Below are positions 25,599 through 43,015 of a stretch of DNA of 64,000 nt, piece after piece (position 1 is the stretch's first letter; every line of letters starts with the position of its first letter). A model generated the notes under the pieces. The model had not been told where the DNA came from. It made no database searches and was given only the letters and a program-made list of their open reading frames with translations. The DNA is from Accumulibacter sp. (GTDB lineage Bacteria; Pseudomonadota; Gammaproteobacteria; Burkholderiales; Rhodocyclaceae): the NCBI RefSeq assembly GCF_023806635.1, contig NZ_JAMTDQ010000090.1:1-64000 (forward strand), in the 5' to 3' direction. A program made the position numbers and the translations under genes.

Positions 25599-25805
25599 GC
25601 GGTCGTCACGAAATCGTCGCGAGCAGGCCGGGAGGCAAGGCGCGAGCGAACGACGAGGCCTGACGGTCGTTCGTTCTCAAAGCCCGGCCGCTCCATTTCC
25701 CGCAAGTCCCGGGGCACCAAACCGCGGTTGCCGGCGGAGTGCACCGATCGCCCCGACCTGCCGTACCATCGTGTGCTGACAGACAGTGCTCGGCAGGAGA
25801 CCCGC

Positions 25806-27440
25806 ATGGCCCGCATCATCCCCGACGGCTGGCGCGAACTCTCGGTCACCGGGGGCGCGCAGCGCGAGATCGAAACGCTCGCCCTCCTCGCCGCCGGCCT
25901 GCCCGACGCGTATTCGGTGTATCACGCCGTGCACTGGACCGCGACCGAAGGGCGCCAGGCCATTTTCGGCGAGATCGACTTCGCCGTGGTCAACCTCGCC
26001 GGCGACATCCTGCTGATCGAACAGAAGAGCGGTTTCCTCGGCGAAACCGCCGCGGGGCTGGTCAAGCAGTACCCCGGGCGGTCGAAGAGCGTCCCCGTGC
26101 AGATCTCGCGCATGGTCGGCAAGCTGCGCGGCAAGCTCGCCAGCCGCGCCGACATCCCCTCGGTGCACACCGATGCCCTGCTCTACTGCCCGGATTACAC
26201 GGTCCGCAACCCGGAAACCGCCGGCCTCGTCCGCGAGCGCATCGTCGACGCCAGCACGCGCGAGCAGCTGTGCCGCATCATCCAGGAACTGCTGCCGGCG
26301 CGCGCGAAGACGCCCGCGACGCCGAAAGTCGACGCCTTCCTGCGCGACCTGATCCAGCTCGACAGCGACGTCAGCGCGCTCATGGGACAGGCGCGCAAGC
26401 TCGTCACGCGGGTTTCCGGCGGCCTCGCCCAGTGGGCGCGGCGGCTCGAATTCGAGCCCTTCCGGCTGCGCATCACCGGCACGGCCGGATCGGGCAAGAC
26501 GCAGCTCGCGCTGGCTGAATACCGCGCCACCATCGAGGCCGGCAAACGGCCGCTCTACGTCTGCTTCAACCGCCCGCTGGCCGACCATTTCAAGCGCATT
26601 GCCCCGCGCGGCGGCGTCGCCTGCACCTTCCACCAGCTCTGCGACCAACGGCTGCGCGACGCCGGCAAGAAACCGGACTTCAGCGCGCCCGACGCCTTCG
26701 AGCGCCTGCAGCAAAGCGCCGCGGCACTGCCGGTGGACGCCGCCTTCGTCTTCGACACGATCATCGTCGACGAGGGCCAGGACATCTCCGAGACGTGGCG
26801 CGATTTCATCTTCCGCCATGCCCGGGCCGATGCGCGCCTCCTCTGGCTGGAAGACCCGATGCAGAACCTCTACGGGCGCCCGCCGACGCCGCTGCCGGGC
26901 TGGGTGACGCTGCGCTCGCAGAGCAACTACCGCAGCCCGCGGCCGATCGTCGAGCTGCTGCGTCGCCTGCTCCCCGGCGAACCCGCGATCGAGGCCGCCT
27001 CGCCGATCGCCGCCGACGAGATCGAGTTCCTCGACTATGCCGACACCGCCGGCCTGTTCGCGCGCATCAAGGAAGCCATCCGCATCTGCTACTCGGCGGG
27101 CTTCAGGAAGCACGACCTCGCCATCGTCAGCTACCACGGCCGCGAGCGCTCGCAGCTGATGGCCCTCGACCGGCTCGGCCAGACCAGCCTGCGCCACTTC
27201 ACCGGCAACTACGATCTCTTCGGGCAGCCGGTGTACACGGATGGCGACGTACTGGTCGAATCGGTCTACCGCTTCAAGGGCCAGTCCGCGCCCGCGGTGA
27301 TCCTCGCCGAGGTCGACTTCGAGGCGCTCGACGACCGGGCGGTGCGGAAGCTCTTCGTCGGCGCGACGCGCAGCTCGATGAAGCTGATCCTCGTCGTGCA
27401 AGAGAGGTCCGCCGCGCGGCTGCTCGAGTGCATGGGCTGA
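25806..27440 (+). CDS. nuclease (NERD-like)-UvrD-type helicase fusion protein
   Basis: A 544-aa protein. N-terminal part (1-about 180) resembles NERD nuclease domains: GEIDFAVVN...ILLIEQKSG carries the D...E-x-K of PD-(D/E)XK. From about 220 on it is an SF1 helicase: Walker A GTAGSGKTQLALAEY, FHQLCD, Walker B TIIVDEGQDISETW, a SNYRS motif, VYRFKGQSAPAVIL and LFVGATRS. ATG at 25806 with GGCAGGAG ahead. Such proteins are common in defence islands and may cut and unwind foreign DNA; the exact role is not known. It marks the left border of the accessory region here. The codon pattern is still like the host. Confidence 0.85.
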   Translation: MARIIPDGWRELSVTGGAQREIETLALLAAGLPDAYSVYHAVHWTATEGRQAIFGEIDFAVVNLAGDILLIEQKSGFLGETAAGLVKQYPGRSKSVPVQISRMVGKLRGKLASRADIPSVHTDALLYCPDYTVRNPETAGLVRERIVDASTREQLCRIIQELLPARAKTPATPKVDAFLRDLIQLDSDVSALMGQARKLVTRVSGGLAQWARRLEFEPFRLRITGTAGSGKTQLALAEYRATIEAGKRPLYVCFNRPLADHFKRIAPRGGVACTFHQLCDQRLRDAGKKPDFSAPDAFERLQQSAAALPVDAAFVFDTIIVDEGQDISETWRDFIFRHARADARLLWLEDPMQNLYGRPPTPLPGWVTLRSQSNYRSPRPIVELLRRLLPGEPAIEAASPIAADEIEFLDYADTAGLFARIKEAIRICYSAGFRKHDLAIVSYHGRERSQLMALDRLGQTSLRHFTGNYDLFGQPVYTDGDVLVESVYRFKGQSAPAVILAEVDFEALDDRAVRKLFVGATRSSMKLILVVQERSAARLLECMG

Positions 27441-27553: not shown

Positions 27554-28000
27554 TCAGAGACTGAAAATGACGCTCATCGGGCGACTGCCTTCGTGTGACC
27601 GGTAGCGGACCTTGCCGATATAGACGAAAGGAGCGCCCTTACCACCCTGCAGCTTCGTCTCCCGCACGAAGAGGTGAATACGGATGCCCAACATCTCGTG
27701 CTGGATCAGTTCCTGTCCGCGCTTGCTGGTCGGAGTCGTGGCGTTCTGGCTTTGCCAGTGGAAGGTGTTCGCGTCGATCCAGTAGTCGTGATAGCGGTTT
27801 TGATCGGCCTTGCCTTGTTTGTTGAGCGTCACCAGCAGCACGTGGATCTTCTGCTCGTTGAGAACAATATGGCCGACGTTCCAGTTGCCGGGATTGAAGG
27901 TCTCGCCGAATAGGCTCGGAATCTGTTCGCGATCGAAGCTCTCGCCCAAGACGAAATCCAGTGGATCGACGAGGGCCTTGAGTCGCGCCAGCGTTCGCAC
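27554..28000 (-). pseudogene. C-terminal remnant of a DUF3427-type helicase/restriction protein
   Basis: The 148-codon frame matches the C-terminal DUF3427 domain of large DEAD/DEAH helicases with nuclease domains: VTLNKQGK...YHDYWIDANTFHWQSQNATTP, then IHLFVRETK, FVYIGKVRYRSHEGSRPMSV. The rest of the roughly 1000-residue protein is absent: the frame stays open to about 28158 but without any similarity I can see, and then the sigma-factor gene promoter region begins. The start given is a GTG, not a proven one. The break is probably where the sigma/Mza block was inserted or where a deletion joined two islands. Confidence 0.7.
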
Positions 28001-28120: not shown

Positions 28121-28238
28121 GAGAGGTGGCCAAGTACCTCGGCAACGCCTGTCGATCGCTTCATCTCACGTCAGTCAGAATTGATGGAATCATGAGTGCT
28201 GGCCCGCTAGCAGAGCATCCGGCATCAGGAGGAGGGGC

Positions 28239-30395
28239 TTGAACGATCGTCCAGCTCACTGCAGAAAGGCCCTCAATCCGCTTCTCAAGATGGCCGTGCT
28301 GGCCGGCGTCCAGACCGCAGTCCGCCTCCACATCCGGCGGGGGGACGACGTCAACGCCACCGATGACCGGGGACGTTCAGCCCTGATTCTGGCAGTCTCA
28401 CGCGGGCATACCGAAACCTGCCGCCTTCTTCTGGAGGCTGGAGCAGATCCCCGCATCCTCGACAATGACGGCAACGATGCCGTTGCGCTCGCGAAAGGCG
28501 CCGGCAGGATCGAACTCGCATTGCTGCTAGGCCAATATCTGTCCGTGTCGCCGAAAACGCAAACCGGAGAGATACCGAGATTCGGGCCCGCGTCGGTCGA
28601 CGGCGACAATAGGGCGTTCTCGGACGAGGCCCGCATCGACCTGTCAGCCTGGGAGGCAGAGGAGGAATCCGAGCCGCCACCCAGCGACGAGCAATGCCTG
28701 GCAACGGCCTCGGCACTCCAGCGGGACATCTCGGCCCATGTTCCAATAGATGCCGACGAAGATTGGTCGGACGTCGACATCGACCTGCCGAACATCCAGA
28801 AGGGCCCCAGGCGCCGAAATCCCTTGGACGATGACAACCGCGATGCCGCACGGCACCTTTTCCTTGTCGGCCTGCGGGACGGCAATGTGCCGCGGAGACG
28901 CATCGCCGAGGTGGCTCTCGGAACTGATGGTGAACCGGACGTTGAGCTTGACGGGCGCCTGTCACTTGCGCTCGGAGACCTTGGCGTCGTCATAGACGAG
29001 GAAGACTGGGAATGGCGTGATCCTGTCTTCATGGATGAGGAATCGGAACGGCTGGCCAACGATGCCCTCACTTTCCTCACCGAACTGACGTACCAGGACA
29101 ATGATCCCCTGCGGCTGTACGTCAAGGACATGGGGACTGAAAGCCTGCTCTCGCGTGAGGACGAGGCCGCGCTTGGACGGGAAATGGAAGCGGGACTTGA
29201 GAATGCCGTCGCTGTCGTCGCAGGTTGCATTCCAGCTGTCGAGGAAATTCTCAAGGTGGCTGGCGAAATCGGGTGTGGCGACATGTCGCTTCGGATCATG
29301 GTCGACAGGGATGCGGTCCCCCAGATGGGGCACCGTGAGATCGACGACTTCATGCCGGGCGAGGAAGTGGTTGGCTGGGGAGGCCCTGACGAGGACAAAG
29401 ACGGAGATGATGATGCCGCGGAGGAACGCGCGGCACCTCCAGACTTCCTCTCCCGCATCGACGCCGTTCGCAGACTGCTTCCCGGCATGCCGCAGGCCGG
29501 CAGCGACACCATGGTCGATCTGCTGCGAGGACTCGGGCTGACCTGGGCATTCCTGGAACATCTCCGCGACGTGCTGGGACGAACCGGAGCCGATCCGGCC
29601 ACCCACCGGACATTGTCCTTGGCGCTCGACAGGGCGGGCAGGGCAAGACGCCGCATGACTGAAGCAAACCTGAGGCTGGTCGTTTCCATCGCCAAAAGAT
29701 ACAGCCGCAGAGGGTTGCCCTTCCTCGACCTGATCCAGGAAGGAAATATCGGCCTGATGAAGGCTGTCGAGAAATTCGAGTACCGGCGCGGCTTCAAGTT
29801 TTCGACCTACGCCACTTGGTGGATCCGTCAGGCAGTCACGCGCGCAATTGCCGATCAGGCGCGTCTTGTCCGCGTGCCGGTGCACATGGTCGAGACGATC
29901 AACCAGGTTGAACGGGCACGCGAGCAGATCGAAGCGGTAACCGGTCGTTCGGAGGATCTCCGTGCGATTGCCGACCTCTTGGCGATCCCGGTCGGAAAGG
30001 TCGCAAAGGCCCTCAGGGCATCAGGTGAAACCGTGTCCCTCGAAGCGTCGACCGGAGAAGAGGACGGTTCGACCATAGAGGAAACCTTGGTGGCTACAAC
30101 GTCGGAACCCGAGGAATGGGCAATGCATCGTGCCCTGCGCGAGGCGCTGGACCGACAGCTCGCCAGTCTGTCTCCCAGGGAGGCCAAAGTGTTGCGGATG
30201 CGCTGCGGCCTCGATGACGGCCATGACCGGACTCTGGAGGAGGTGGGGCAGGCATATGGCGTCACGCGGGAACGCATCCGCCAGATTGAAGCCAAGGCCC
30301 TGCGCAGGTTGCGGCACCCCTCCCGTGCCGACAGCTTGCGGCCGTTCCTCCCCGGTTCAGGAAACACCAAACAGGAAGAGGACGATGAATCCTAG
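28239..30395 (+). CDS. ankyrin-repeat/sigma70 fusion protein (first gene of the Mza-type operon)
   Basis: A 718-aa protein with no standard counterpart. Residues 15-100 hold ankyrin repeats ([40 protein letters not shown]). Residues 197-275 look like a sigma 1.1-type acidic domain. Region 1.2 is at 288-320 ([21 protein letters not shown]). An acidic insert (350-400) precedes region 2 at 470-550 ([37 protein letters not shown]); region 3 is at 551-625 and region 4 at 643-696 with [20 protein letters not shown]. All DNA- and core-binding parts look intact, so it should work as an RpoD-like sigma factor. Start codon TTG at 28239 behind GGAGGAGGGG. Its end overlaps the MutL gene by 11 nt. GC is lower than in the flanks. 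It may correspond to mzaA. Confidence 0.85.
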
Positions 30396-31902
30396 CAAGT
30401 CCCGCCATGCTCCTCCAAAGGCAGGCGCCATGATTGAAGCCCTGCGAGGTCTTGGCTATTCGACGGCCACCGCGTTGGCCGACCTCATCGACAACAGTAT
30501 CGCCGCAGGTGGGAACCTCGTGGATATCCAGTTCTCCTGGAAAGGATCGGCGAGCACCATCGCCGTTCTTGACAACGGCGAAGGAATGGATGAGGGCGAG
30601 CTTGATCTGGCCATGCGCCTCGGAGAGAAGAGCCCTCTCGACCAGCGTGCTGCCCACGACCTCGGCCGGTTCGGGCTTGGTCTCAAAACTGCATCATTCT
30701 CGCAGTGCCGAAGGCTGACTGTAGCCAGTCGCAAGGCGGGAAAGACGAACTGTCTGCGGTGGGATCTGGATGTCGTGGCGGCCAGCGACGATGACGGCTG
30801 GCATCTCCTTGAAGGACCCGCCGAAGGCTCTGAGGCACTGCTGAGTTCACTGGATTCCCCGGAACATGGCACGCTCGTGCTCTGGGAAATCCCTGACAGG
30901 ATCGTCACTCCCGGTTTTGCCGAGCAGGACTTCCTCGACCTGGTCGACCGGATAGAGCGGCACCTTGCCATGGTCTTCCACCGCTTTCTCTGCGGGCCAC
31001 GACCCAGGTTGCATCTGGCCATCAATGGCCGTCCGGTCCGACCGTGGGATCCATTTCTCATTGGGCATGCAGCCACCTGGTCATCGCCTGTCGAGCGCAT
31101 TGCTGCCGACGGCGGACTGGTGGAAGTTCAGTGCTACGTGCTGCCGCACAAGGATCGCCTCGATGCGCACGAGCACGACGCGGCGGCCGGACCTGACGGC
31201 TGGACGGCACAACAGGGCTTCTACGTGTACCGGAACGAGCGTCTTCTCGTCGCGGGAAGCTGGCTGGGCCTTGGGCGGGGACGTTCCTGGACAAAGGAGG
31301 AGGCCCACCGCCTGGCACGAATCAGGCTGGATATTCCGAATACAGCTGACGCCGAATGGAAGATTGATGTCCGCAAGTCTACTGCGCGGCCACCGGTATC
31401 CATTCGCGAGCGTCTCAACCGGCTCGCCGAAGATACCCGGGAGCGAGCACGCCGCGTCTTCGCCCACAGAGGGCAGCCGGTACGGACCGGCAACGGCGGG
31501 CCCCTCCTCCAAGCATGGCGCGCAGAGCACTTCAAAGGGGGGATTCGCTACCGGATCGACATCGATCACGCCGCAGTGAGGGCAGTCCTCGACGATGCCG
31601 GCCCCATGGAGGCCCAGGTTCGGGCCATGCTGCGCGTCATCGAAGAAACCATCCCAGTGCAACGAATCTGGCTGGACACCACCGAGGCGCGCGAAACGCC
31701 GCGCACCGGCTTTGCCGGAGAACCGTCGGAGGAAATCATCCCGGTACTCTCGGTCATATACAGGAACATGGTGTTGCGCAATGGAATGTCACCGGCACGT
31801 GCAAGGGAGCAACTCCTGCGTACCGAACCCTTTAATGCCCACCCGGATCTCGTGGCTGCCCTTCCCGACGAACCTACCCCCCCAAGAGTAATAGAAAGAT
31901 GA
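30385..31902 (+). CDS. mzaB: MutL/MORC-like GHKL ATPase (MzaB type)
   Basis: A 505-aa GHKL ATPase. Box [14 protein letters not shown] (N37), box G1 [13 protein letters not shown] (D63, G65), box G2 [14 protein letters not shown] (94-107), and a following S5-fold region with a conserved Lys in [12 protein letters not shown]. It is not a mismatch-repair MutL: the C-terminal dimer/endonuclease domain is absent. Homologues sit in restriction-like loci beside Z1 helicases, DUF4420 nucleases and methylases (Iyer, Abhiman and Aravind) and are part of the antiphage Mza system. ATG 30385 overlaps the sigma gene; the end overlaps the next gene as ATGA. Confidence 0.88.
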
Positions 31903-34757
31903 CGACAGCAGCAGAGGAAAACAGGCAGAGGGTGGTCAAATTTGTCCAGGAGCTTCTGCTCGACGAGGAGGATCGGTCCGCCATTACGCCGGCGCTCATT
32001 GCCGGGAAGATCGACATGATCGTAGCGATGAAGCCAAAGTGGGGCGAGGAACTGGATCGGGATGCCGTGACGGACGAGCTCATCCGTCGTTTCAGCTTAT
32101 GGATCGGACAAGACACGACGCTCAAGAGCGATGCCGGACACGAGCCATGGTTGACCTCGTCCAGGAAGCAGGACTGGCGGTACTGGCAACGCTACCGGGA
32201 GTGGCTGGAGCGGAAGATTTCCTGGAAGGCAGTCGAGGCTCTGGATCAGTCGACGGATGCAGTCCTCGGCCTTCTTGAGGACCCCAGCCGGGAAGGTCGC
32301 TGGGATCGGCGGGGACTTGTCGTCGGCCATGTGCAGTCCGGCAAGACGGGCAACTACACCGGTCTTATCTGCAAGGCGGCAGATGCAGGCTACAAGATAG
32401 TCATCGTCCTCGCCGGGCTGCACAACAATCTGAGATCGCAAACCCAGATGCGTCTTGATGAGGGCTTCCTCGGCTATGAAACTAAGCCTGTGCCTGACGA
32501 CATCAGGATCATTGGTGTGGGGGAGATCGACGGTGATCCGAGCATCCGTCCGAACTACGCCACGAATCGCTCCGACAAGGGGGACTTCAACACCTCGGCA
32601 GCCAAGAGCCTTGGCATTACGCCGGAACAACGGCCTTGGCTGTTCGTGGTGAAGAAGAACAAGACGGTGCTCGAAAGGCTATACCGCTGGATCCGGAATC
32701 ATGTGGCCAACATGCAGGATCCCGAGACCGGCATAAAGGTCGTGACCCATCTCCCGCTGATGCTAATCGACGATGAGGCCGATCACGCCTCCGTCGATAC
32801 CGGGGAACAGATATTCGATGCCGAGGGCAAACCCGATGAGGAGCACGAACCGACCGCCATCAATAGCCGCATCCGCAGGATCCTCCACTCCTTCTCCCGC
32901 TCGGCCTATGTCGGGTATACGGCTACACCCTTTGCCAACATCTTCATCCACGAAAGGGGCGCAACGCGCGAGGAGGGGCCGGATCTTTTCCCCTCTTCCT
33001 TCATCATCAACCTCGCAGCTCCCTCCAACTACGTCGGCCCTGCAAAGGTCTTCGGACTGCTTTCACCGGAAGGTCGCCGCGGCGGGCTGCCATTGGTCCG
33101 TCAGATCGACGACTATGCAACCGACGATGGTCGCGGCGGGTGGATGCCGCAAAGACACAAGAACGGCCACATCCCGCTCCATAACGGCATTGATGGCCTG
33201 CCTCCCTCCCTCGTCGAGGCAATCGACGCCTTCCTCCTCGCCTGTGCGGCCCGGCGCATTCGCGGCCAGGGCAACGACCACTGCTCAATGCTGGTACACG
33301 TCACACGCTTCAATGCTGTTCAGAGGGACGTTTACCGACAAGTCGAGGAGCATGTCCGCCATCTGCGCCAGAGAATCCTTCGGCAGATTGATCACGAAGA
33401 CGCTATCGCGCGCCTCAAGGCACTCTGGGAGAACGATTTCGTGCCCACGTGCGAAGCCATCCCCGCTGTTCAGTCCGATCTGGCCGCGCCGAGGAATCTG
33501 GCATGGGACGAGGTCCTGCCAGTGCTGCGAGAGACCATCGCGGATATCGAGATCAGGATGATCAACGGCACGGCCAAGGACGCACTGGATTATGCCGAAC
33601 GCCACGCTACTGGTCTCAAAGTCATTGCCATCGGGGGCGACAAGCTCGCCCGCGGACTGACTCTGGAGGGGCTTTGCGTCAGCTACTTCCTGCGGGCGTC
33701 AAGGATGTACGACACGCTCATGCAGATGGGACGCTGGTTCGGATATCGCCCTGGCTACCTCGACCTGTGTCGCCTATATACGACTGCTGAGCTCTCCGAG
33801 TGGTTCGGGCATATCGCCGCCGCCGCCGAGGAACTGCGCGAGGAATTCGATCTGATGGCGGCAACCGGTGCGACTCCGAGGGAGTACGGCCTCAAGGTGC
33901 AGTCCCACCCCGTGCTGATGGTTACCTCTCGCCTCAAGATGCGTGCTGCGCGGAACCTGTTGCTCTCGTTCAGCGGGCAGCTTCTTGAAACCGTATCCCT
34001 CTACCGTGATTCCCAAGTGCTGGGGCGAAACCTCGAAGCTGCGGCACGACTGCTGTCCGGCCTCGGCAAGCCGGAAATTGATCCGGTCCGCATTCGTGCA
34101 GGTACTCGCCAGCAATGGAAGGGATTCCTGTGGAATGACGTTGCAGCGGCCGACGTGGTGGATTTCCTGACGGCCTACAGGACGCACCCTGAGGCATACA
34201 AGGTGAACAGCGCCCTGCTCGCCGAATTCGTTCGGTCGATGGCCGCTGCCGATGAGCTGACACACTGGACGGTTGCGGTCATTGGTGGCGGCGAGGGTGG
34301 CGCCTGCGAGATCTGTAGCGGCATCCGCGTGGACATGCTCAAGCGCGTCAACAATGGTCCTTATGAGAACCGGTACTCGATCGGCCGCCTGATGTCATCT
34401 CGCGATGAAGCCATCGATCTAGACGAAACCGCCTGGGCATCAGCTCTTTCGGTGACGCGCGACTCTTGGCACGCGGACCCGGCGAGGCTTCGGGAAAGCA
34501 AGGAGCCGGACACCCCGAACGGGCCGGCCGTCCGCAAGGTTCGGGGATTCGGGGCAGACGGTGTGGCTCCACATCCGGAACGAGGTGTGCTGCTGCTCTA
34601 TGTGCTCGACCCAATGAAGGCAGACGCAGGCCTCCCCGCGGACACGCCGCCCGTCATTGGATTCGGTGTGAGCTTCCCGGGCAGCAACTCCGGTCTCAAG
34701 GTCGAATACAAGGTCAACAATGTCCTATGGGAGCAGGAATATGGCCCTGCAGAGTAG
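31899..34757 (+). CDS. mzaC: Z1-domain superfamily 2 helicase-like protein (MzaC type)
   Basis: A 952-aa protein. Helicase N-lobe: Walker A VGHVQSGKTGNYTG (143-154) and VLAGLHNNLRSQT; Walker B MLIDDEADHAS (about 287); motif YVGYTATPFANIF. The Z1 domain proper (about 570-650) has GGDKLARGLTLEG and TLMQMGRWFGYRPGY with the arginine finger region. Role in the family: ATP-driven DNA translocation or remodelling feeding the linked nuclease. ATG overlaps the MutL stop by 4 nt; the next gene starts within its last codons (17-nt overlap). Length is normal for Z1 proteins. Confidence 0.9.
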   Translation: MTTAAEENRQRVVKFVQELLLDEEDRSAITPALIAGKIDMIVAMKPKWGEELDRDAVTDELIRRFSLWIGQDTTLKSDAGHEPWLTSSRKQDWRYWQRYREWLERKISWKAVEALDQSTDAVLGLLEDPSREGRWDRRGLVVGHVQSGKTGNYTGLICKAADAGYKIVIVLAGLHNNLRSQTQMRLDEGFLGYETKPVPDDIRIIGVGEIDGDPSIRPNYATNRSDKGDFNTSAAKSLGITPEQRPWLFVVKKNKTVLERLYRWIRNHVANMQDPETGIKVVTHLPLMLIDDEADHASVDTGEQIFDAEGKPDEEHEPTAINSRIRRILHSFSRSAYVGYTATPFANIFIHERGATREEGPDLFPSSFIINLAAPSNYVGPAKVFGLLSPEGRRGGLPLVRQIDDYATDDGRGGWMPQRHKNGHIPLHNGIDGLPPSLVEAIDAFLLACAARRIRGQGNDHCSMLVHVTRFNAVQRDVYRQVEEHVRHLRQRILRQIDHEDAIARLKALWENDFVPTCEAIPAVQSDLAAPRNLAWDEVLPVLRETIADIEIRMINGTAKDALDYAERHATGLKVIAIGGDKLARGLTLEGLCVSYFLRASRMYDTLMQMGRWFGYRPGYLDLCRLYTTAELSEWFGHIAAAAEELREEFDLMAATGATPREYGLKVQSHPVLMVTSRLKMRAARNLLLSFSGQLLETVSLYRDSQVLGRNLEAAARLLSGLGKPEIDPVRIRAGTRQQWKGFLWNDVAAADVVDFLTAYRTHPEAYKVNSALLAEFVRSMAAADELTHWTVAVIGGGEGGACEICSGIRVDMLKRVNNGPYENRYSIGRLMSSRDEAIDLDETAWASALSVTRDSWHADPARLRESKEPDTPNGPAVRKVRGFGADGVAPHPERGVLLLYVLDPMKADAGLPADTPPVIGFGVSFPGSNSGLKVEYKVNNVLWEQEYGPAE

Positions 34758-35763
34758 GAGGGAAGAACTGCTCGCGGCTTGGCGCGCCCTGACCGGCAAC
34801 CAGGAAGGGGAAGGCTGGCGCACCATCCCAGTTGCCCATGGCGGACCATGCCGATTTCTTGCCGGGCGGCGCTTTCCGGGAAACGACGAGGCCCTGCTCG
34901 TGGGCTTCAATTCGGTGCGAGTACCGGCGGGCGACCATCTTCCCGAAGGCAGGGGATTTCTGGTGTCCAGGGCATCCCTTGCCGGGGCGGGTGCCGACCG
35001 CGTCTGGATCGCGCTCTGCCGGCAGAGTGCCGGCAGTCTTGACCTCTTCGCGATGATGACCGACGACGTGCTCACCACGATCCAGGGTCTTCGAGGCGCT
35101 GACGACGAGAGACTCTTCAACATATTCCTCGCGCGCATCAGGGCTTGGCAGGATTTCATGCGCCGAGGGGTAGATGGCGTCCTCTCCCCCGAGGCCGAGG
35201 TGGGCCTCTTCGGCGAGCTCGAATTCCTGCAAGACCTCATTTCGGCCGGTGTGCCTGCTGCCATCGCAGTCGACGCGTGGCAGGGGCCTCTGGACGGAAT
35301 TCAGGACTTCATCCTCGGACCGGGAGCGATCGAGGTCAAGAGCACGGTGTCCCCAAGCAGCTTTCCTGGAGCCGTAGGCTCCCTCGAACAACTGGACGAC
35401 TCGTTGACCCGGCCGATTTTCGTTGCCGGCATCCGGCTCGTACTGACCACTTCAGGAGGAACCCTTCCCGACCAGCTTGTCGGCCTGCGAAGACTCATGG
35501 CGAATGAGCCTGCCGCGCTGGAACTTTTCGGCGCACGCCTGCTTCACGCGGGATTTGTCGACGGGGTCGCTGATCGCTACACGCGCCGGTTCGTCCGAGT
35601 GTCGACACGGATGCTCCATGTCACTGACGACTTCCCCCGCCTGACACGGGCAAACGTCGCGATTGAAATCAGAAGGGCGCGTTACGAGATCGACCTCGAC
35701 CTGATATCCTCACGCGACCTGGAGATTGGGCACGTCCTCAGACAACTTGGGATGATTCAATAA
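34741..35763 (+). CDS. mzaD: DUF4420 PD-(D/E)XK motif protein (MzaD type)
   Basis: A 340-aa predicted restriction-type nuclease. The PD-(D/E)XK core is visible: E in GLFGELEFLQDL (about 162), then WQGPLDGIQDFIL with the Asp and IEVKST with E and K (about 195-200). Start ATG at 34741, inside the Z1 gene, is preferred over one 21 nt upstream because MALQSRREELLAAW starts the usual DUF4420 helix. The stop and the AIPR start overlap as TAATG. Within Mza this is the best candidate for the DNA-cutting subunit. Confidence 0.87.
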   Translation: MALQSRREELLAAWRALTGNQEGEGWRTIPVAHGGPCRFLAGRRFPGNDEALLVGFNSVRVPAGDHLPEGRGFLVSRASLAGAGADRVWIALCRQSAGSLDLFAMMTDDVLTTIQGLRGADDERLFNIFLARIRAWQDFMRRGVDGVLSPEAEVGLFGELEFLQDLISAGVPAAIAVDAWQGPLDGIQDFILGPGAIEVKSTVSPSSFPGAVGSLEQLDDSLTRPIFVAGIRLVLTTSGGTLPDQLVGLRRLMANEPAALELFGARLLHAGFVDGVADRYTRRFVRVSTRMLHVTDDFPRLTRANVAIEIRRARYEIDLDLISSRDLEIGHVLRQLGMIQ

Positions 35764-37556
35764 TGGAATTGGTGGATTTCCTGCGCCAGACACAGGCCGA
35801 AGTGCAGGCAGAGATCGGCGAGCGCCTTGGCGCCGCGCCCGAGGCCTATCCGTATCCCGAATCGGTCTTTGCCGAGGTGGTCATGCAGCACATGTCCGAA
35901 ATCGGCATGACTTTCGAGCCCGAGGTATGCCACTACTCTGCCAGGGTCGCGAATGCGAACCTCCGCCTGAGCGGTTTCGCAGTTTCGGACGATGCTGACC
36001 AGCTTGATCTGTTCGTGAGCCTCTATGCCGGGGTAGACCAAGTCATGCCCGTCCCGGACTCCGAAACCAAAACGGCAGCCGAGCAATGCCTGCGATTCCT
36101 CGCCAAGTGCGCCGAGGGCAGGCTTGCGGCCACCATGGATGAGTCCAACGATGCCTATGCCCTCGCGGTGACCATTCAGGGGTGCTACGCCAACCTCGAC
36201 CAGATCAGGATCTATGTCCTCACCGATCGACAGGCGAGAGCCAAGAACTTCACGGCGCGTGAGGTTAACGGCAAGACCGTCAAGCTCGAAGTCATGGACA
36301 TCGAGCGCCTCCACCGTCACTGGTCCGAGGGCAAACCCCGTGACGAACTCGTGGTGAACTTCGACGAGGTATCAGGCAGCGCTCTGCCTTGCGTCTATGT
36401 TCCGGGCAAGATGACCGACTACGACTGTGCGCTTACCGTCATTCCGGGGGAGGCGTTGCGCTTCCTTTATGACAAGTACGGTGCCCGTCTTCTGGAAGCC
36501 AATGTTCGCTCGTTCCTGAGTGCAACGGGAAAGGTCAACAGGGGCATACGGGACACCCTCAGGGAAGATCCCGAGAGGTTCATGGCCTACAACAATGGCA
36601 TCGTGATCGTCGCGGATGAAGCCCATCTCGGCAGAACTGCCGATGGTAGTCCGGGCATTGTCTGGCTCAAGGGCATGCAGATCGTCAACGGCGGGCAGAC
36701 AACGGCCTCAATCTATTTCACCAAGAAGAGGGGGCCCGAAGTCGATCTGCGGCAGGTCCGTGTGCCGGCCAAGGTCATCGTCCTGCGGTCGCGCGACACA
36801 GCTGCGGAAGAGGCCCTTATCTCGGACATATCGAGATACGCAAACAGCCAGAATTCCGTCAGGCAATCCGACTTGTCGGCCAACAAACCCTTCCACGTCG
36901 AGATGGAGAGGCTTGCGCTGTGCACGTATTGCCCCGATGGTGTCGGACGCTGGTTCTATGAACGGGCTGCCGGCAGCTACAACACGATGCTCGCCCGCGA
37001 GGGAAACACGCCGGCTCAACTCAGGCGCCTGAAAGAGATCGTGACGCCACCATCGCGGAAGATAATCAAGACGGATCTGGCGAAGTACATCAACGCCTGG
37101 GACCGAAGGCCCGATCTGGTCAGTCTTGGGGCACAGAAAAATTTCGAGTGTTTCATGGATGGCCTCAGGGCGCCCGAGGGGCAGCCGCCGGCACCACTGC
37201 CAGACGTTGCTGCGTTCAAGGGGATGATTGCCAAGGCGATCCTTTTCAAGAAGACTCATGCACTGGTCAGACCCATGTTCCCTGCCTTCCAGGGAAATGT
37301 GGCTGCCTACCTTGTTTCCGTGCTTTCGGATCAACTGGGCGGCCGGATCGACCTCGACAGGATATGGGCAAAGCAGGATATCTCACAGGAGCTGAGGGAG
37401 CAGCTACGGACGTGGGCCGTTGAGGTGAATGACTCGCTGCACAGGAGTTCCGGAGGAAGGATGATCTCGGAGTGGGCCAAGAGGCCCGAGTGCTGGGATG
37501 CGGTCCGAGCTCAGAGATATTCGCCGGTCAGAGACGGGATTCCAGAACTGCGCTGA
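35763..37556 (+). CDS. mzaE: AIPR family (abortive phage infection) protein (MzaE type)
   Basis: A 597-aa protein with the AIPR domain (about 230-520): FMAYNNGIVIVADEA, then LKGMQIVNGGQTTASIYF, the hallmark NNG...IVNGxQT pair. AIPR was named after an abortive-infection protein of lactococci; many members are restriction-associated. The N-terminal 200 residues are helical and acidic with no motif I recognise. It is last in the overlapping five-gene run; vsr follows 15 bp later. Biochemical action unknown, a nuclease-like fold has been suggested. Confidence 0.9.
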   Translation: MELVDFLRQTQAEVQAEIGERLGAAPEAYPYPESVFAEVVMQHMSEIGMTFEPEVCHYSARVANANLRLSGFAVSDDADQLDLFVSLYAGVDQVMPVPDSETKTAAEQCLRFLAKCAEGRLAATMDESNDAYALAVTIQGCYANLDQIRIYVLTDRQARAKNFTAREVNGKTVKLEVMDIERLHRHWSEGKPRDELVVNFDEVSGSALPCVYVPGKMTDYDCALTVIPGEALRFLYDKYGARLLEANVRSFLSATGKVNRGIRDTLREDPERFMAYNNGIVIVADEAHLGRTADGSPGIVWLKGMQIVNGGQTTASIYFTKKRGPEVDLRQVRVPAKVIVLRSRDTAAEEALISDISRYANSQNSVRQSDLSANKPFHVEMERLALCTYCPDGVGRWFYERAAGSYNTMLAREGNTPAQLRRLKEIVTPPSRKIIKTDLAKYINAWDRRPDLVSLGAQKNFECFMDGLRAPEGQPPAPLPDVAAFKGMIAKAILFKKTHALVRPMFPAFQGNVAAYLVSVLSDQLGGRIDLDRIWAKQDISQELREQLRTWAVEVNDSLHRSSGGRMISEWAKRPECWDAVRAQRYSPVRDGIPELR

Positions 37557-37571: not shown

Positions 37572-38036
37572 ATGGCCGACATTGTCACTCCTGAGAAACG
37601 CAGCCGGATGATGGCAGGCATCCTTGGGAAAGATACCAAGCCGGAAATGCTCGTTCGCCGCGCGCTGTTCGCCGAGGGATTCCGCTTCCGCCTGCATCGA
37701 AGTGATCTCCCCGGTGGGCCGGACATCGTTCTACCGGGTAGGAAGGTAGCCATCTTCGTTCATGGCTGTTTCTGGCATCATCATGCCGGATGCCGATTTG
37801 CAAAACTGCCATCGTCCAACACCAATTTCTGGCGCAACAAGCTTGATGGCAACGTCGAGCGTGACAGACGAGCCGCCGAGGCACTGCGCTCAGCAGGCTG
37901 GCGGGTGCTGACGGTGTGGGAATGTGCCACTCGTGACAAGTCGGTCGTGCTGTCCATCGGCGCACTGGTTCACCGGTGGGTTGATGATGGTGCGCCGGTT
38001 GGCGAGATAGCTATGCGTGATTCCGCTGCTCCGTAG
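37572..38036 (+). CDS. vsr: very short patch repair endonuclease Vsr
   Basis: A 154-aa Vsr nuclease, which nicks next to T:G mismatches made when 5-methylcytosine deaminates. Motifs: TPEKRSRMMAGILGKDTKPE, GGPDIVLPGRKVAIFVHGCFWHHH with catalytic Asp and His residues, and zinc-binding C/H set in the FVHGCFWHH...C region. It pairs with the C5-cytosine methylase encoded convergently; the 3' ends of the two genes overlap by 26 bp. ATG 37572 follows AIPR by 15 bp with GAAGG ahead, so it is transcribed with the Mza operon although its partner is not. Confidence 0.95.
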   Translation: MADIVTPEKRSRMMAGILGKDTKPEMLVRRALFAEGFRFRLHRSDLPGGPDIVLPGRKVAIFVHGCFWHHHAGCRFAKLPSSNTNFWRNKLDGNVERDRRAAEALRSAGWRVLTVWECATRDKSVVLSIGALVHRWVDDGAPVGEIAMRDSAAP

Positions 38037-39561
38037 CAGCCCTCGCCAGGAAATCGGAGACCACTCCTGCTATCTGCCGGGCCAGGTAGGGTGGCACGGC
38101 ATTTCCGACCTGGACGTACTGCTCGGTCCTGTTGCCCTCAAAGAAGTAGTTGTCCGGAAAGGTCTGCAAACGAGCTGCCTCCCGCACGGTAAGGCTTCGA
38201 CACTGTGATGGATCGGGATGAATATAGTAGTGCCCGTCCTTCGATATGTGCGATACGACAGTAGTGGATGGATACTGGCTGACTTGGACGCGAAAGCGAT
38301 CGGTGAAAGGTATGCTGTCAGCTTTCACGTTGCAGTGTTCCGGCAGGAGCCCCTTTGGAAATTGTGCCAGTTTGGGTGAATAGCCGAACTCGGCGGCATA
38401 ACAGGAAGCGAACAGATAACGGTGAAGGTCTGAACGCATATGGGCACGGGTTTCGTGCAGCGTGGTTCCTCCGAGCCGCGGATCGTGATACCAGGAACGA
38501 AGGGCTGTCGGCATCGAGGTCTCGGTGTTCACGTCACCTGCCACGAACCTGCCCCCGGTCGACTGGTGTGCTGCGGCTCTCGTCGCCGCTTCGCGCATCC
38601 ACTCCTCGATCTTTTCTCTGGTCTTGGTCCTCCATCCCTTGAGGCTGCGTGGAGCTTCCCTGATCACCTGGAACCACGACTCGAAGGAATCCGGCTCCCT
38701 CGACAGACGGCTGCGCAAGAGTGGCAAACCTGAAATGGCCTGCCGCACCGATACCCTGCCGGTCGTCGCCGGCGACAGCACGTCATGATCGAGCCATGAC
38801 AGATCGCGCCGCACTCCGAAAAGAATGACCCTGTGGCGCATCTGCGGGATGCCAAAATTCTCGGCTTCGATGATGAAGTCCCGGGGCCTGACGCTGTCAC
38901 CGTGACCATCAACCACGAATGATCGTATGTCATATTCAAGACCGTTGCCGGGCCAGGAGAGATCGTCCAGTATCCGCTCGAAGATGAGCGACCCACCATG
39001 TTTGGACGTAAGGATGCCCTTGACGTTTTCCATCACGAAGATGGCCGGGCCGAAGCTGCGGATGATTCGCAGATACTCCCTGTAGAGAAAATGGCGCTTG
39101 TCCTCTTCGAACGCCTTCGGGTCGGCCCCACGCATCCGTGAACGTCCCGCAATCGAGTATGCCTGGCAGGGTGGACCTCCTATCAGGATCCACGGATCGC
39201 TATTCCTGATGGACTCGCGGATCCACTGGTCAACCTTCTCGCGCGGAGTTTCGCCCAACGTCGCGTTCTTCGCCTCGGCGTAGGCCGCACGCGAAGCATC
39301 CGTTATTGAAGGATGAGAGAGCACTTCTGCCCTGGTGATATCACCCCTCACATAATCGTAATAGGGGTCAGGGGCACTCCCTTCTGGAAAACTGCGGAAC
39401 AGGGCGCGAAGCGAGAGCGTCCTGTGCGCGACAGGATCTTTCTCAATGGAGACGCGAACGTCAAAGATCCGCGAGCCCGATCTGTCCGTTAGTGAAGAGA
39501 AACCTTCTCCGAGCCCCCCTGGGCCAGCAAAGAGATCTACAACCGGAATCGGTGTCGGCAT
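38011..39561 (-). CDS. DNA (cytosine-5-)-methyltransferase
   Basis: A 516-aa C5-methylase. Motif I VVDLFAGPGGLGEGFS, IV GGPPCQAYSIAGRSR with catalytic Cys, VI VMENVKGIL, VIII QMRHRVILFG, a target recognition region of about 150 residues (about 290-440) and motif X QVGNAVPPYLARQIAG. Start ATG at 39561 has AAGGAA 6 nt ahead and places motif I at the N-terminus; the frame is open further up to 39834 without similarity. Target sequence unknown, probably protects host DNA from the linked nuclease system and creates the sites Vsr repairs. Transcribed leftwards, behind the IrrE-like gene (217 bp gap). Confidence 0.94.
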   Translation of the reverse strand: MPTPIPVVDLFAGPGGLGEGFSSLTDRSGSRIFDVRVSIEKDPVAHRTLSLRALFRSFPEGSAPDPYYDYVRGDITRAEVLSHPSITDASRAAYAEAKNATLGETPREKVDQWIRESIRNSDPWILIGGPPCQAYSIAGRSRMRGADPKAFEEDKRHFLYREYLRIIRSFGPAIFVMENVKGILTSKHGGSLIFERILDDLSWPGNGLEYDIRSFVVDGHGDSVRPRDFIIEAENFGIPQMRHRVILFGVRRDLSWLDHDVLSPATTGRVSVRQAISGLPLLRSRLSREPDSFESWFQVIREAPRSLKGWRTKTREKIEEWMREAATRAAAHQSTGGRFVAGDVNTETSMPTALRSWYHDPRLGGTTLHETRAHMRSDLHRYLFASCYAAEFGYSPKLAQFPKGLLPEHCNVKADSIPFTDRFRVQVSQYPSTTVVSHISKDGHYYIHPDPSQCRSLTVREAARLQTFPDNYFFEGNRTEQYVQVGNAVPPYLARQIAGVVSDFLARAATEQRNHA

Positions 39562-39778
39562 CAATTCCTTGGTTTGATGGTCGAGGCGTTGGTTGTCGCA
39601 CAAACCTGGGACGTCTTCCCGCTCGTCGACCTCACCGGCCATTGCGGGTGGCGACGGTCGAGAGCCGGTATCCCCTGGATTGCTGTCGTTAGCGGCTTGG
39701 GTCGGTTGAAAATCAGCTACTGCCTTGGGGAACGCGAACTCTCGACCGTAAGCGGAAGTTGAGATCACGAAAAGCAGA

Positions 39779-41098
39779 TCAGGCTGCCATTCGATACGGC
39801 ATGCCATCGGTCCAGTGATCGTGCATGTAGCCATTGTTGCGCAACAGGCTCGTTATCGTCTGCTCGCTGACGTCGAACTCGGCGGCGGCTTCTTCGATGG
39901 CGTAGGAAGAGAAATCACCGTTCAGGAAAGACGTCAATGAATCGATGGGGCAAAGAAACTCTGCGGCGAAAGCGCGCTGGTACTTCTGACGGAAAGTCCA
40001 TAGGTCGGTTGATACAAGCCAACGCAATTCGTCAGCCGCGGGACGGAGGTACTCGCCCAGGAAACGTGCCAACTCGAAGCGTTTCCCGCCAGGGTTGCGC
40101 TTGCGCGGAACGAACTTCAACCGGTGATCGTTCGTCGGTATCGCCACCGCGACTGGCGACCGTCCAACCGGCACCGAGTATTTGGCCGCAGCTTCACTGC
40201 TCATGCCAAGCAGGTCATGCAGACTGCGGTCGGGAACTGGGCCTCTGACATTGCCAATCTTGTTGCGAAGCGCACGAGCGTCATGAACCGCGCGCTCCCA
40301 GGGTGCCCCGTGGTCCAGGTGATCGATGCTGCCAGGCGAGACATCGGGGCTGCCAACAATTCCGTCGGCGCTGGCCAGCTGCCCAATCAGCGCCAAATCC
40401 GGGGGTCCTCCCGACGCTGCAATCGCCGGTGCCAGTTCTGAAAGTGCCGCGTCTCCGACCTGGCTCTCCCGCTGCAGCGCCGCGTCCAGCGCTTGCTCCG
40501 GACACTCCTCGGGATCAAATCCCAGTTCGGCCTCCAGCTTCCGCCGGCGGACCGCCTCGGGGTCGGCCAAGTCTTCCTGCACGAGGGCCCACAGGTGCGC
40601 CAAATTCGACCCAGCGAGCCCCTTGGCATCCAGGCGGGCCAGCACGCTGTATATGAAGCGCTCGACGCTCTGCTGAAAGCCAGTCAACGTGATCATTCTC
40701 GGCACCTCCAGCGCTTGCAGGTACTGCACCGACTGCTCCGGCATCATCGACGTCCCGGCCCACACGTGAATCGCCTCACCATCTGGGATGAAGATGACGC
40801 GCGGCCATACGAAGCCGTGATTGGCTGCACCGAGTTCATGGACCATACGCCAGTCATGGCGAGGCTGCTGCGTTGGCAAGGGCTCATGGTTGAGGCGCCA
40901 CCACGAACTCGCAAACCACATGGCCAGCGGGTAGGCAGAGACAAAGACGTTGTCACGCACGGTCTCCGCCCAGATGTCCTGGTTCCGAGTCAGGCTGATG
41001 TTGTCGACATACATCTCGACACAGGCTGCTGTGGCCATGACTTCCGGTTCCCCGGATACTGATGCCATCCACTTTGCGTCGATGCGCAGCTCAGCCAT
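39779..41098 (-). CDS. multidomain ImmA/IrrE-like protein lacking HExxH in its C-terminal domain
   Basis: A 439-aa protein. The C-terminal part (about 335-430) follows ImmA/IrrE metallopeptidases: KRFELARFLGEYL takes the place of the RFTLAHELGH helix, and QRAFAAEFLCPIDSLTSFL and FDVSEQTITSLLRNNGY match the later part (FAAxLLxP, vS...i). The zinc ligands are missing, so this domain is probably not a protease. An N-terminal MVHELGAANHGFVWP (84-98) precedes an ordered region of unknown fold. ATG 41098 overlaps the upstream small gene by 8 nt, so they form one unit, like a toxin-antitoxin or sensor pair (inference). Its true role in defence is unknown. Confidence 0.65.
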   Translation of the reverse strand: MAELRIDAKWMASVSGEPEVMATAACVEMYVDNISLTRNQDIWAETVRDNVFVSAYPLAMWFASSWWRLNHEPLPTQQPRHDWRMVHELGAANHGFVWPRVIFIPDGEAIHVWAGTSMMPEQSVQYLQALEVPRMITLTGFQQSVERFIYSVLARLDAKGLAGSNLAHLWALVQEDLADPEAVRRRKLEAELGFDPEECPEQALDAALQRESQVGDAALSELAPAIAASGGPPDLALIGQLASADGIVGSPDVSPGSIDHLDHGAPWERAVHDARALRNKIGNVRGPVPDRSLHDLLGMSSEAAAKYSVPVGRSPVAVAIPTNDHRLKFVPRKRNPGGKRFELARFLGEYLRPAADELRWLVSTDLWTFRQKYQRAFAAEFLCPIDSLTSFLNGDFSSYAIEEAAAEFDVSEQTITSLLRNNGYMHDHWTDGMPYRMAA

Positions 41099-41531
41099 TG
41101 AGGCACCGCCAGCGACGAATGACTTCCAGCGACAGGGGATCAGTCTCAGGCATGGGGTACCCGTGATAGGTCCCCAAATCCGGGCTTTCAAGCTGCGCTT
41201 CCACGGCAAGACCGTCGTCAGTGACTGCCCATACGTTCTTCGGCCAATCGCCAACCATCCGGTCGCTGACAAGGCCCTTGCGCAGTCCCGCGCGAAGTAA
41301 CGCTTCAGCTTCGTTACGCTTGAGAATCTTGGCGAAATCGCACAGCGATTTCCCTTGTCTTGGATCGGAAGGTGGAACGAGCCCAAAATCGCCGGGGTTC
41401 TTCTTATGCTCCGGGTTGCCGCCATAGCGAGCGCGACTGGCCAACGCACGGAGTTCGGCCACGCGAACTTCCACCTCAGCGGGCGAGAGTAGTTTGCGTT
41501 TGGGATTGAACTGTGCGTAGCGACGCTTCAT
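41091..41531 (-). CDS. conserved partner protein of the IrrE-like gene, unknown function
   Basis: A 146-aa soluble, basic protein (MKRRYAQFNPKRKLLSPAEV). Features: RARYGGNPEHKKNPGDFGL, a helix region with CDFAKILKRNEAEALLRAGL, and a beta-rich part WAVTDDGLAVEAQLE...GTYHGYPMP. I remember similar proteins next to IrrE-like genes in other genomes, but no function. The end overlaps the next gene by 8 nt. Start ATG 41531 chosen as the first Met; the gap upstream is about 580 bp. It might be a small toxin or a binding partner. Confidence 0.6.
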   Translation of the reverse strand: MKRRYAQFNPKRKLLSPAEVEVRVAELRALASRARYGGNPEHKKNPGDFGLVPPSDPRQGKSLCDFAKILKRNEAEALLRAGLRKGLVSDRMVGDWPKNVWAVTDDGLAVEAQLESPDLGTYHGYPMPETDPLSLEVIRRWRCLNG

Positions 41532-42111
41532 CGTGTTCAGGGCAGGGGAGACAAGTACCGCCGTTGAGTTTACCAGCCCATTCGATGGTACTGGCCAAAA
41601 TGGACCGGTAGTTCGCGTTCGTCATCCGGGAACGCCAACGGTCAGGCCATTCAAGCTGACAGCGACAGCAATCCGTGCGACTTCAGCCATGCATCCTAGC
41701 CACCCCCAATGACTGCTCTGGCCGAAAAGCAGGCCGACCCACTACAGCGCCGAGCGGCCGGTCTCTGATCGGTTACCTGCCGCTCGGGCTGCTCGATCTT
41801 CAGGGGCCGCTGCGGCCGCTACCGGCCGGTCACCGACCGCCGCCATCCTACACCCAGTGGCCGCTTCCTGCACAGGAGCGGTCGGGAAGTCGAGAGAATC
41901 CGCAGCTCAGCCCAATGGCGGCTTCTGACCGGTCGCTCGCGGCCAACCTTGGCTCACCGTGAACAAGCATCGGGGCCCAAGGACCGGATGTTGTATCGGA
42001 TTTCTGCAAACGCGCCTGGCCCCTGCGTTGCCTCCCGTCCTGTGCGAGGATGCCAGGCGGCGGGCTCACAGCAAGGCGATGACTGAGACCGCGGATCACT
42101 CGAGGACTGCC
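41532..42111. repeat. gene-free stretch with degenerate GGCCGCTTCTG/CCGGTC repeats
   Basis: No gene is visible. From about 41710 to 41960 short related motifs recur: CTGGCCGAAAAGCAGG, GGCCGGTCTCTGATCGG, GTGGCCGCTTCCTGCACAGG and TGGCGGCTTCTGACCGGTCG. They look like degenerated REP-like or IS-end-derived palindromes. It could be a recombination scar between the defence block and the following debris. Confidence 0.45.
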
Positions 42112-43015
42112 ATGAACAACATGGAACGTATTTATCAGATCGACCAGATTCTCGGCGCACGCCACTGCGTCACCCGCAAGGAGTTGCAGGAACGTCTCGG
42201 CGTCTCCTGGGCCACGCTCAAGCGCGACCTCGCCTACATGCGCGACCGCCTGAACGCGCCGATCCGCTTCGACCGCAACCTGGGCGGCTACCGCTTCGAG
42301 AAGGCCGGACAGCGGGTCGGCGCGCACTATGAGCTGCCCGGCCTGTGGTTCAGCGCCGAGGAAATCCATGCGCTGCTGACCATGCATCATCTCCTGTCGA
42401 ACCTCGACACCGGCGGCCTGCTCGCCCGTCTCACCGGCCTGCTCGGCAGCGCCGACAACCCGGCCGAGGAGGTGCAGCGCCGCATCCGTATCCAGACGGT
42501 CGGTGCCCGCGAATTGCACTTGGACCACTTCCAGAGCGTCGGCTCCGCCCTGCTGCGGCGAAAACGCCTGCTGATCCGCTACCATGCGCGCGGCACCGAC
42601 GAGGTGACGCAACGCGAGGTCTCGTCGCAACGCCTCAACCGCCACCGCGGTAAGGGGTACCTCGACACCCGGTGCCATCTGCGGGACGGCCCGCGCGCCT
42701 TCGCGGTCGACGCCATCGCGCACGCCGAAGTCCTCGACACGCTCGTCCGCGACGTCGCCGACCAGCGCCTCGACGAAGTGCCGGGATCGGGCTACGGCCT
42801 ATTGTCGGGGGAGCGCATCGCCTGGGCGGTACGCGCTTCACGCCGGAGCGGGCGCGTTTCTCGCCGCCAGCCGCTACGAGCTGCGTGTTCCCTACACCGA
42901 CGACCGTCAATTGATCATGGACATCATGAAGTACGGCGGCGACTGCGAGCTCGTCGCGCCGGAAGCGCTCAGGGCGCGGGTGGCTGCGGAGTTCGCGGCA
43001 GGACCAGCGCGCGCT
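42112..43015 (+). pseudogene. WYL-domain transcriptional regulator, frameshifted
   Basis: Begins as a normal HTH-WYL regulator (MNNMERIYQIDQILGARHCV, winged helix, then the WYL region with LIRYHARGTDE, CHLRDGPRAFAVDAI and GSGYGLLSGERIAWAV). Near 42830 the reading frame must shift to continue as RFTPERAR, and near 42860 shift again to reach FLAASRYELRVPYTDDRQLI...YGGDCELVAPEALRARVAAEF. All three pieces are in WYL order, so two indels have broken the C-terminal part. Such regulators bind nucleic-acid ligands and control defence genes; here the ligand domain is lost unless the indels are sequencing errors. Confidence 0.8.

What the first reader, a model, noticed from the sequence alone, without database searches (positions are those of the whole stretch)
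28239..30395. RpoD-like sigma factor fused to ankyrin repeats heading an antiphage operon
All sigma regions 1.2, 2, 3 and 4 look intact, joined to an ankyrin domain and a 1.1-like acidic domain. Why a defence system encodes its own primary-type sigma factor is not known. It could direct transcription of the operon on infection, with ankyrins sensing a phage protein, or it could trap or redirect phage-modified RNA polymerase.
Basis: partly seen in the sequence, partly recalled or inferred. Interest (0 to 1): 0.8.

Follow-up and report, generated by a model that had tools for sequence, protein, structure and literature searches.

The report
MZA defence operon's ankyrin sigma factor
The gene is a housekeeping-type sigma factor with an ankyrin-repeat head, the first gene of an MZA-type antiphage operon; it keeps the key DNA- and polymerase-contact residues, and in some bacteria its sigma half seems to have been replaced by one from the main sigma factor.

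Summary
Window 28239-30395 (+) encodes 718 aa with ankyrin repeats, an acidic linker, a divergent region-1.1-like domain and sigma regions 1.2, 2, 3 and 4. It is MzaA-type, heading MzaBCDE, Vsr and a convergent Dcm. That MZA carries a sigma factor is in print (PMC9523054); I found no work on its function. Of 81 loci, 68 have mzaA next to mzaB, 6 complete loci lack it, 7 are cut off; 61 of 68 keep the ankyrins. In 67 compared proteins the central -35 contacts are invariant although the rest has drifted: probably a promoter-reading sigma, not a dead decoy. New here: in three betaproteobacterial lineages the sigma half groups with RpoD, in two with their own hosts', while MzaC follows other MZA loci; support varies, and one quick tree disagrees for one lineage. 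In 12 of 59 assessable loci a WYL regulator directly precedes mzaA, so the sigma need not be the operon's switch. Likeliest role: an ankyrin-gated spare primary sigma used during infection. Unproved.

The parts
28227..28237 (+). Shine-Dalgarno-like AGGAGGAGGGG before the TTG start
   Evidence: sequence
28239..30395 (+). mzaA-type gene: ankyrin-linker-1.1-like-1.2-spacer-2-3-4 sigma factor, 718 aa
28272..28532 (+). ankyrin repeats (aa 12-98)
   Evidence: Pfam Ank_2 aa 17-98; family HMM aa 12-97; helices in the AF2 model
28650..28793 (+). acidic linker with conserved tryptophan motifs (aa 138-185: W138, P147, W176, P184)
   Evidence: W138, W176, P184 invariant and P147 nearly invariant in a 32-sequence alignment without the divergent alphaproteobacterial clade
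28830..29000 (+). region-1.1-like domain (aa 198-254)
   Evidence: hhalign to RpoD 1.1; Foldseek to sigma1.1
29103..29201 (+). sigma region 1.2 (aa 289-321)
   Evidence: Pfam
29235..29579 (+). acidic spacer in the place of the RpoD non-conserved region (aa 333-447)
   Evidence: family HMM that also matches host and E. coli RpoD; charge
29661..29864 (+). sigma region 2 (aa 475-542)
   Evidence: Pfam
29892..30116 (+). sigma region 3 (aa 552-626)
   Evidence: Pfam
30159..30317 (+). sigma region 4 (aa 641-693) with the -35 recognition helix TRERIRQIE
   Evidence: Pfam; contacts
30385..31902 (+). mzaB-type: GHKL (MutL/MORC-type) ATPase; its ATG overlaps the end of mzaA by 11 nt
   Evidence: NF041932 832 bits, cut-off 850; start read; my references began one codon early, at 30382
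34720..35763 (+). mzaD-type: PD-(D/E)XK, DUF4420 (exact start uncertain)
35763..37556 (+). mzaE-type: AIPR protein
   Evidence: NF041935 1049.7 bits, cut-off 1050
37572..38036 (+). Vsr endonuclease
38011..39834 (-). C5-cytosine methyltransferase (Dcm type), convergent (exact start uncertain)

Best explanation
MzaA is an active primary-type (RpoD-like) sigma factor kept under control by its own N-terminal half. Shown by sequence: most region 2-4 residues that contact promoter and core are conserved, and an ankyrin module, an acidic tryptophan-motif linker and a 1.1-like domain precede them. Inferred: the ankyrin/linker/1.1 module holds the sigma inactive or tethered (region 1.1 restrains RpoD, recalled) until infection or a partner releases it. 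The released sigma then loads the host core enzyme on ordinary -35/-10 promoters while the phage has disabled or appropriated RpoD, so that the defence operon and other host genes stay transcribed. Because it must fit the resident polymerase and promoters, its sigma half is kept RpoD-like and has probably been replaced by an RpoD half in some hosts. It is an add-on: the MzaBCDE core, with Dcm and Vsr, also occurs without it.
For: 67 MzaA sigma cores (window + 66 loci; L065 and L086 dropped as incomplete): R584, E585, R586, R588, Q589, R562, T572, L573, R441, R451 in 67 of 67; Q437, W434, F427, D403, Q406 in 66 of 67 (E. coli numbering). In 59 non-redundant sequences, 26 recalled contact positions are more conserved than the other RpoD-invariant positions (p 2e-8 within regions 2 and 4; the 5 core contacts alone p 0.013). 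The region 3.2 finger keeps its length in most (median 41 vs 43 residues). Two of 17 MzaA homologues scanned in Pfam besides the window, L077 and L087, carry GcrA-type domains, a DNA-binding activator partner of sigma70 (role recalled). mzaA abuts mzaB in 68 of 68 loci that have it; 36 of 68 show a possible 4-nt start/stop overlap. RpoD-type replacement: AU tests reject placing L071 (p 0.006) or L035/L038 (p 0.005) sigma cores with the MzaA of their MzaC relatives, and an RpoD group free of MzaA (p 0.026). In one search the Gallionellaceae cores sit with their own hosts' RpoD (78/97), L010 with its own genome's (71/89), L071 with Comamonadaceae RpoD (98/87).
Against: No test of infection, binding or transcription was possible. 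All MzaA as one clade is not rejected on the larger set (AU p 0.147); a quick tree places the Gallionellaceae cores just outside RpoD; the tested groups were chosen after seeing the trees. Segment identities alone do not settle it: the window's own regions 2 and 4 are as close to RpoD as to other MzaA (0.81 vs 0.80, 0.68 vs 0.67). The upstream promoter scan is at chance. 12 of 59 assessable loci have a WYL regulator in front, which could give infection control without the sigma. 6 of 74 loci with the needed upstream sequence lack the sigma. Some contacts vary: T440 (T in 32 of 67), M413 (31 of 67), N409 (47 of 67). Docking of the ankyrins on the sigma is not shown: the full-length model has pTM 0.49.
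Confidence: 0.4

Rival explanations
1. Dedicated operon autoregulator: MzaA chiefly transcribes its own operon on infection, a positive loop.
For: First gene of the operon here, overlapping mzaB; promoter-contact residues kept.
Against: The -35 contacts are the same as RpoD's, so no special promoter class is implied; upstream scan at chance, 4 of 65, no positive control; a WYL regulator precedes mzaA in 12 of 59 assessable loci.
Confidence: 0.2
2. Homing device: MzaA-RNA polymerase sits on strong sigma70-type phage early promoters, and ankyrins/linker bring the MzaB-E nuclease complex there.
For: Tight coupling to mzaB; ankyrins and tryptophan-motif linker widely kept; over 49 loci, distances of the ankyrin part correlate with MzaE, MzaD and MzaB after removing MzaC (partial r 0.28, 0.24, 0.16; 0, 2 and 11 of 300 permutations).
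Against: The sigma core correlates as well or better (0.35, 0.35, 0.28), so the signal is not specific; the MzaBCDE core occurs without MzaA.
Confidence: 0.22
3. Decoy or trap: MzaA binds phage anti-sigma proteins or modified polymerase and takes them out of action without transcribing.
For: An ankyrin module could bind phage proteins (inference); positive selection in the sigma70 non-essential domain of mzaA, within overall negative selection, is reported (PMC10924106, passages).
Against: A pure decoy needs no -35 and -10 readout, yet these contacts are among the most conserved residues.
Confidence: 0.08
4. Relic: the sigma is carried along and does nothing for defence.
For: Six complete loci lack it; one MzaA-position protein kept only region 4 (L065).
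Against: Present in 68 of 74 loci with the needed upstream sequence, with constraint on function residues.
Confidence: 0.07

Closest known systems
MzaA of the MZA antiphage system (NCBIfam NF041931, PADLOC MzaA; system of Gao et al. 2020, recalled, paper not held)
   Same: Best NCBIfam and PADLOC hit; the NCBI model covers both the ankyrin part (positions 2-91) and the sigma part; same gene order A-E
   Different: 573 bits against NCBI's cut-off of 800; MzaB-E fall just under theirs; Vsr and Dcm adjoin
Housekeeping sigma factor RpoD / sigma70
   Same: Regions 1.2, 2, 3, 4 and a 1.1-like domain; 60% identical to the host's own RpoD over regions 2-4; same -35 helix as the host's RpoD
   Different: Ankyrin repeats and tryptophan-motif linker; divergent 1.1; lies in a defence operon while a separate rpoD ORF of 649 aa is on another contig
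Type II Mza-like system of PMC9523054 (passage read)
   Different: mzaA reported in only a few of those; ~20% identity to MzaBCDE reported there
WYL regulators of defence operons (CapW/BrxR type, recalled)
   Same: A WYL-type gene directly precedes mzaA in 12 loci
   Different: None directly upstream in the window; its WYL gene is at 41959-43032

Membership tests
MZA system | MzaA-MzaB-MzaC-MzaD-MzaE in this order on one strand | tested here: met
MZA system | NCBIfam equivalog cut-offs (A 800, B 850, C 1500, D 420, E 1050 bits) | tested here: not met
   A 573.3, B 832, C 1437.6, D 399.2, E 1049.7: B-E narrowly under, A clearly. I therefore call it MZA-type, not an NCBI equivalog
MZA system | Defence against phage | not testable with these tools
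   -
MzaA | N-terminal ankyrin plus C-terminal sigma70 | tested here: met
   in the family 61 of 68 give an ankyrin hit and 66 of 68 full regions 2-4
RpoD (TIGR02393) | C-terminal equivalog cut-off 354 bits | tested here: not met
   317.2 bits
Primary-type sigma factor (function) | Region 2.3/2.4 and 4.2 promoter contacts and region 2.2 core contacts present | tested here: met
   the window has the RpoD residue at all 26 listed positions; list of contacts recalled
Primary-type sigma factor (function) | Region 1.1 present | tested here: inconclusive
   hhalign 92.4, E 5e-7; Foldseek best hits sigma1.1 but E > 0.1; no Pfam hit in the window protein
Primary-type sigma factor (function) | Binds core polymerase and initiates transcription | not testable with these tools
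   -

The most novel reading that the evidence does not exclude
MzaA is a phage-proofed spare primary sigma whose sigma half is repeatedly swapped for the resident cell's RpoD while the ankyrin/1.1 lock stays with the defence operon, so that the system re-tunes itself to each new host's polymerase and is released when a phage takes over RpoD.
Probability: 0.25. Interest if true: 0.8.

Novelty: new member of a known kind. Interest (0 to 1): 0.5.

Why it matters
Some phages disable or redirect the main sigma factor (T4 AsiA/MotA, PMC6755090, listing abstract and passages). A defence operon that brings its own primary-type sigma, refitted from rpoD, would be a direct answer to that attack, and it gives a testable reason for an unexplained gene of a known defence system. 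The swap pattern also offers a way to ask what must stay compatible when a defence system changes host.

Tried and rejected
Rejected: 'categorically new' (it is MzaA-type; sigma in MZA already in print, PMC9523054). 'Sigma finger lost in the family': a first look at the alignment suggested it, but lengths show 3.2 is kept in most, median 41 vs 43; 16 of 67 have 34 residues or fewer. 'Tryptophan motif in other Mza proteins': 20 hits of a loose pattern, all in the MzaC-position ORFs, look like chance. 'Ankyrin split off in L054 and L061': none found. Promoter footprint: scan at chance; in the alphaproteobacterial clade the upstream DNA proved to be, in 6 of 7 aligned loci, the end of a WYL gene. 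Residue 563: the window alone has C where 63 of 67 have F; F563Y in sigma70 weakens AsiA binding (PMC2988021, passage), but one sequence is an anecdote. The WYL profile found nothing in the six sigma-less loci.

Literature. Ten searches (PMC open-licence papers only). Read as passages: PMC9523054, PMC2292703, PMC12479173, PMC10924106, PMC2988021, PMC6755090, PMC13373217. The Gao 2020 paper is not held; what I say of it is recalled. I found no paper on MzaA's ankyrin part, its function, or sigma-core replacement in those searches; subscription papers are mostly absent there.

Weak points. The contact list, sigma70 matrices, region 1.1 role, GcrA role and CapW/BrxR role are recalled. The AU groups were chosen after seeing the MzaC and sigma trees. 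Bootstraps had not settled. Rows dropped: L065 and L086 before all sigma counts and trees; 27 of 100 rows (24 MzaA, 3 other host sigmas; mostly long branches); 22 of 79; one search used 12 MzaA. ORF starts are mechanical and often too far upstream. Of five extra loci (L140, L144, L147, L148, L149), four show a sigma core; L148, with a partial mzaB match, shows none, only a 158-aa ORF on the other strand with 45 bits to MzaA.

Full report
What is there. The ORF at 28239-30395 (+) is 718 aa with a TTG start behind AGGAGGAGGGG. Pfam finds ankyrin repeats (aa 17-98) and sigma70 regions 1.2, 2, 3 and 4, all over cut-off. Between them lie an acidic linker and a domain at aa 198-254 that aligns with RpoD region 1.1 in a profile comparison (local probability 92.4, E 5e-7; global 59.8). 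The model of that part has a SigA model and the sigma1.1 domain of B. subtilis as its best structural hits, with E-values above 0.1. The window protein has no Pfam hit there.

The family. From 80 genome loci found by MzaC and one plasmid locus, 68 of 81 have mzaA abutting mzaB; 7 are cut off by a contig end; 6 are complete and lack it, and no listed match in those 6 genomes spans both halves of MzaA. Of the 68, 61 give an ankyrin hit, 46 a 1.1-like hit and 66 full regions 2-4. L065 keeps only region 4 and L086 part of region 2. Of the 7 without an ankyrin hit, L015 and L025 are cut off by a contig end. L054 and L061 have none. The sigma-less loci need two changes on the MzaC tree, which cannot tell loss from gain. 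Three more distant MZA-like loci have Dcm (two also Vsr) next to mzaB and no sigma in the 1.3-1.5 kb held upstream (L141-L143). The sigma is thus an add-on to an effector core.

Is the sigma alive? I aligned 67 MzaA sigma cores with 30 RpoD. The MzaA cores are only 28-70% identical to E. coli RpoD (median 45%, 59 non-redundant). Yet R584, E585, R586, R588 and Q589 of the -35 helix are the same in 67 of 67, as are R562, T572, L573, R441 and R451; Q437, W434, F427, D403 and Q406 in 66 of 67. The 26 contact positions (recalled from published structures) are more conserved than the other RpoD-invariant positions, p 2e-8 within regions 2 and 4; the five core contacts alone give p 0.013. T440, M413 and N409 vary. 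The region 3.2 finger keeps its length in most. L077 and L087 carry GcrA-type domains. I read this as a sigma that binds core enzyme and ordinary promoters; binding itself is not shown.

History of the sigma half. L071 (Limnobacter) lies among Comamonadaceae RpoD (98/82; 84/80; 98/87). The Gallionellaceae MzaA lie inside RpoD, with their own hosts' RpoD (98/97; 78/97), but just outside RpoD in the quick tree. L010 joins its own genome's RpoD (71/89). Their MzaC proteins sit with other MZA loci, and their ankyrin parts are 0.48-0.71 identical to other MzaA. AU tests reject L071 (p 0.006) and L035/L038 (p 0.005) grouping with the MzaA of their MzaC relatives, and an RpoD clade without MzaA (p 0.026). 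Against this, all MzaA as one clade is not rejected on the larger set (p 0.147), and segment identities alone are ambiguous even for the window. I conclude that the sigma half was replaced at least once (L071) and probably two or three times from RpoD. For the Gallionellaceae the switch lies between 1.1 and 1.2; for L071 and L010 region 1.2 is undecided. This would fit selection for compatibility with the resident polymerase.

Control of the operon. A sigma70 promoter scan upstream of 65 mzaA genes finds 4 at p<0.05, as chance would (mean z 0.19, p 0.13); there was no positive control, and power is low in GC-rich DNA. In 12 of 59 loci with at least 1 kb upstream, a WYL-type regulator gene ends at, overlaps or lies 44 nt before the mechanical start of mzaA. 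Eight of the 12 were scanned in Pfam and all eight have WYL. Two more (L021, L041) show weak hits 282 and 228 nt upstream; L089 has a WYL gene on the other strand. WYL proteins such as CapW and BrxR control defence operons (recalled). In these loci the switch may be the WYL protein. The window has no such gene directly in front.

The N-terminal half. A linker motif with W138, W176 and P184 invariant in 32 sequences, the divergent alphaproteobacterial clade not included, marks a conserved segment of unknown partner. Distances of the ankyrin, 1.1-like and sigma parts all correlate with the other Mza proteins beyond MzaC (49 loci), without pointing to one partner. PMC10924106 (passages) reports mzaA among genes with high mutation frequency and, despite overall negative selection, positive selection in its sigma70 non-essential domain, consistent with conflict with phage.

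Mechanism. I favour an ankyrin-gated spare primary sigma (0.4) over a homing device for the effector complex (0.22), an operon autoregulator (0.2), a decoy (0.08) and a relic (0.07). Only the anatomy, the constraint and the discordant history are shown; gating, release and benefit during infection are inference.

Noticed in passing
L087:5221-8505 and L077:6070-8505: MzaA homologues carrying GcrA-type domains: after region 4 in both; L087 has three GcrA stretches, and helix-turn-helix hits at aa 253-286 suggest one between ankyrins and sigma.
   Followed up: partly
L031, L033, L034, L037, L070, L072, L076, L077, L081, L083, L084, L087 upstream of mzaA: WYL-type regulator gene directly upstream of the sigma gene.
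   Followed up: partly
window 28650-28793: Conserved acidic tryptophan-motif linker between ankyrins and the 1.1-like domain, partner unknown.
   Followed up: partly
L065:5155-8409: Protein of 1084 aa in the MzaA position with only sigma region 4 recognised by Pfam.
   Followed up: no
L148: Gallionellaceae genome with a partial mzaB match and no sigma core upstream; a 158-aa ORF on the other strand has 45 bits to MzaA.
   Followed up: no
L021, L029, L032, L041: A second, more distant AIPR (MzaE-like) ORF follows mzaE (340-387 bits).
   Followed up: no
window 25728-27440 (+): NERD/UvrD-like helicase gene upstream of the operon.
   Followed up: no
window 27554-28000 (-): Short ORF matching only the later part of DUF3427 / type IV restriction enzyme models, perhaps a remnant.
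   Followed up: no
window 39779-41449 (-): ORF of 556 aa next to Dcm with no Pfam (E<=0.1), PADLOC or NCBIfam (E<=0.01) match.
   Followed up: no
window 41959-43032 (+): WYL-domain transcription regulator beyond the Dcm gene.
   Followed up: no
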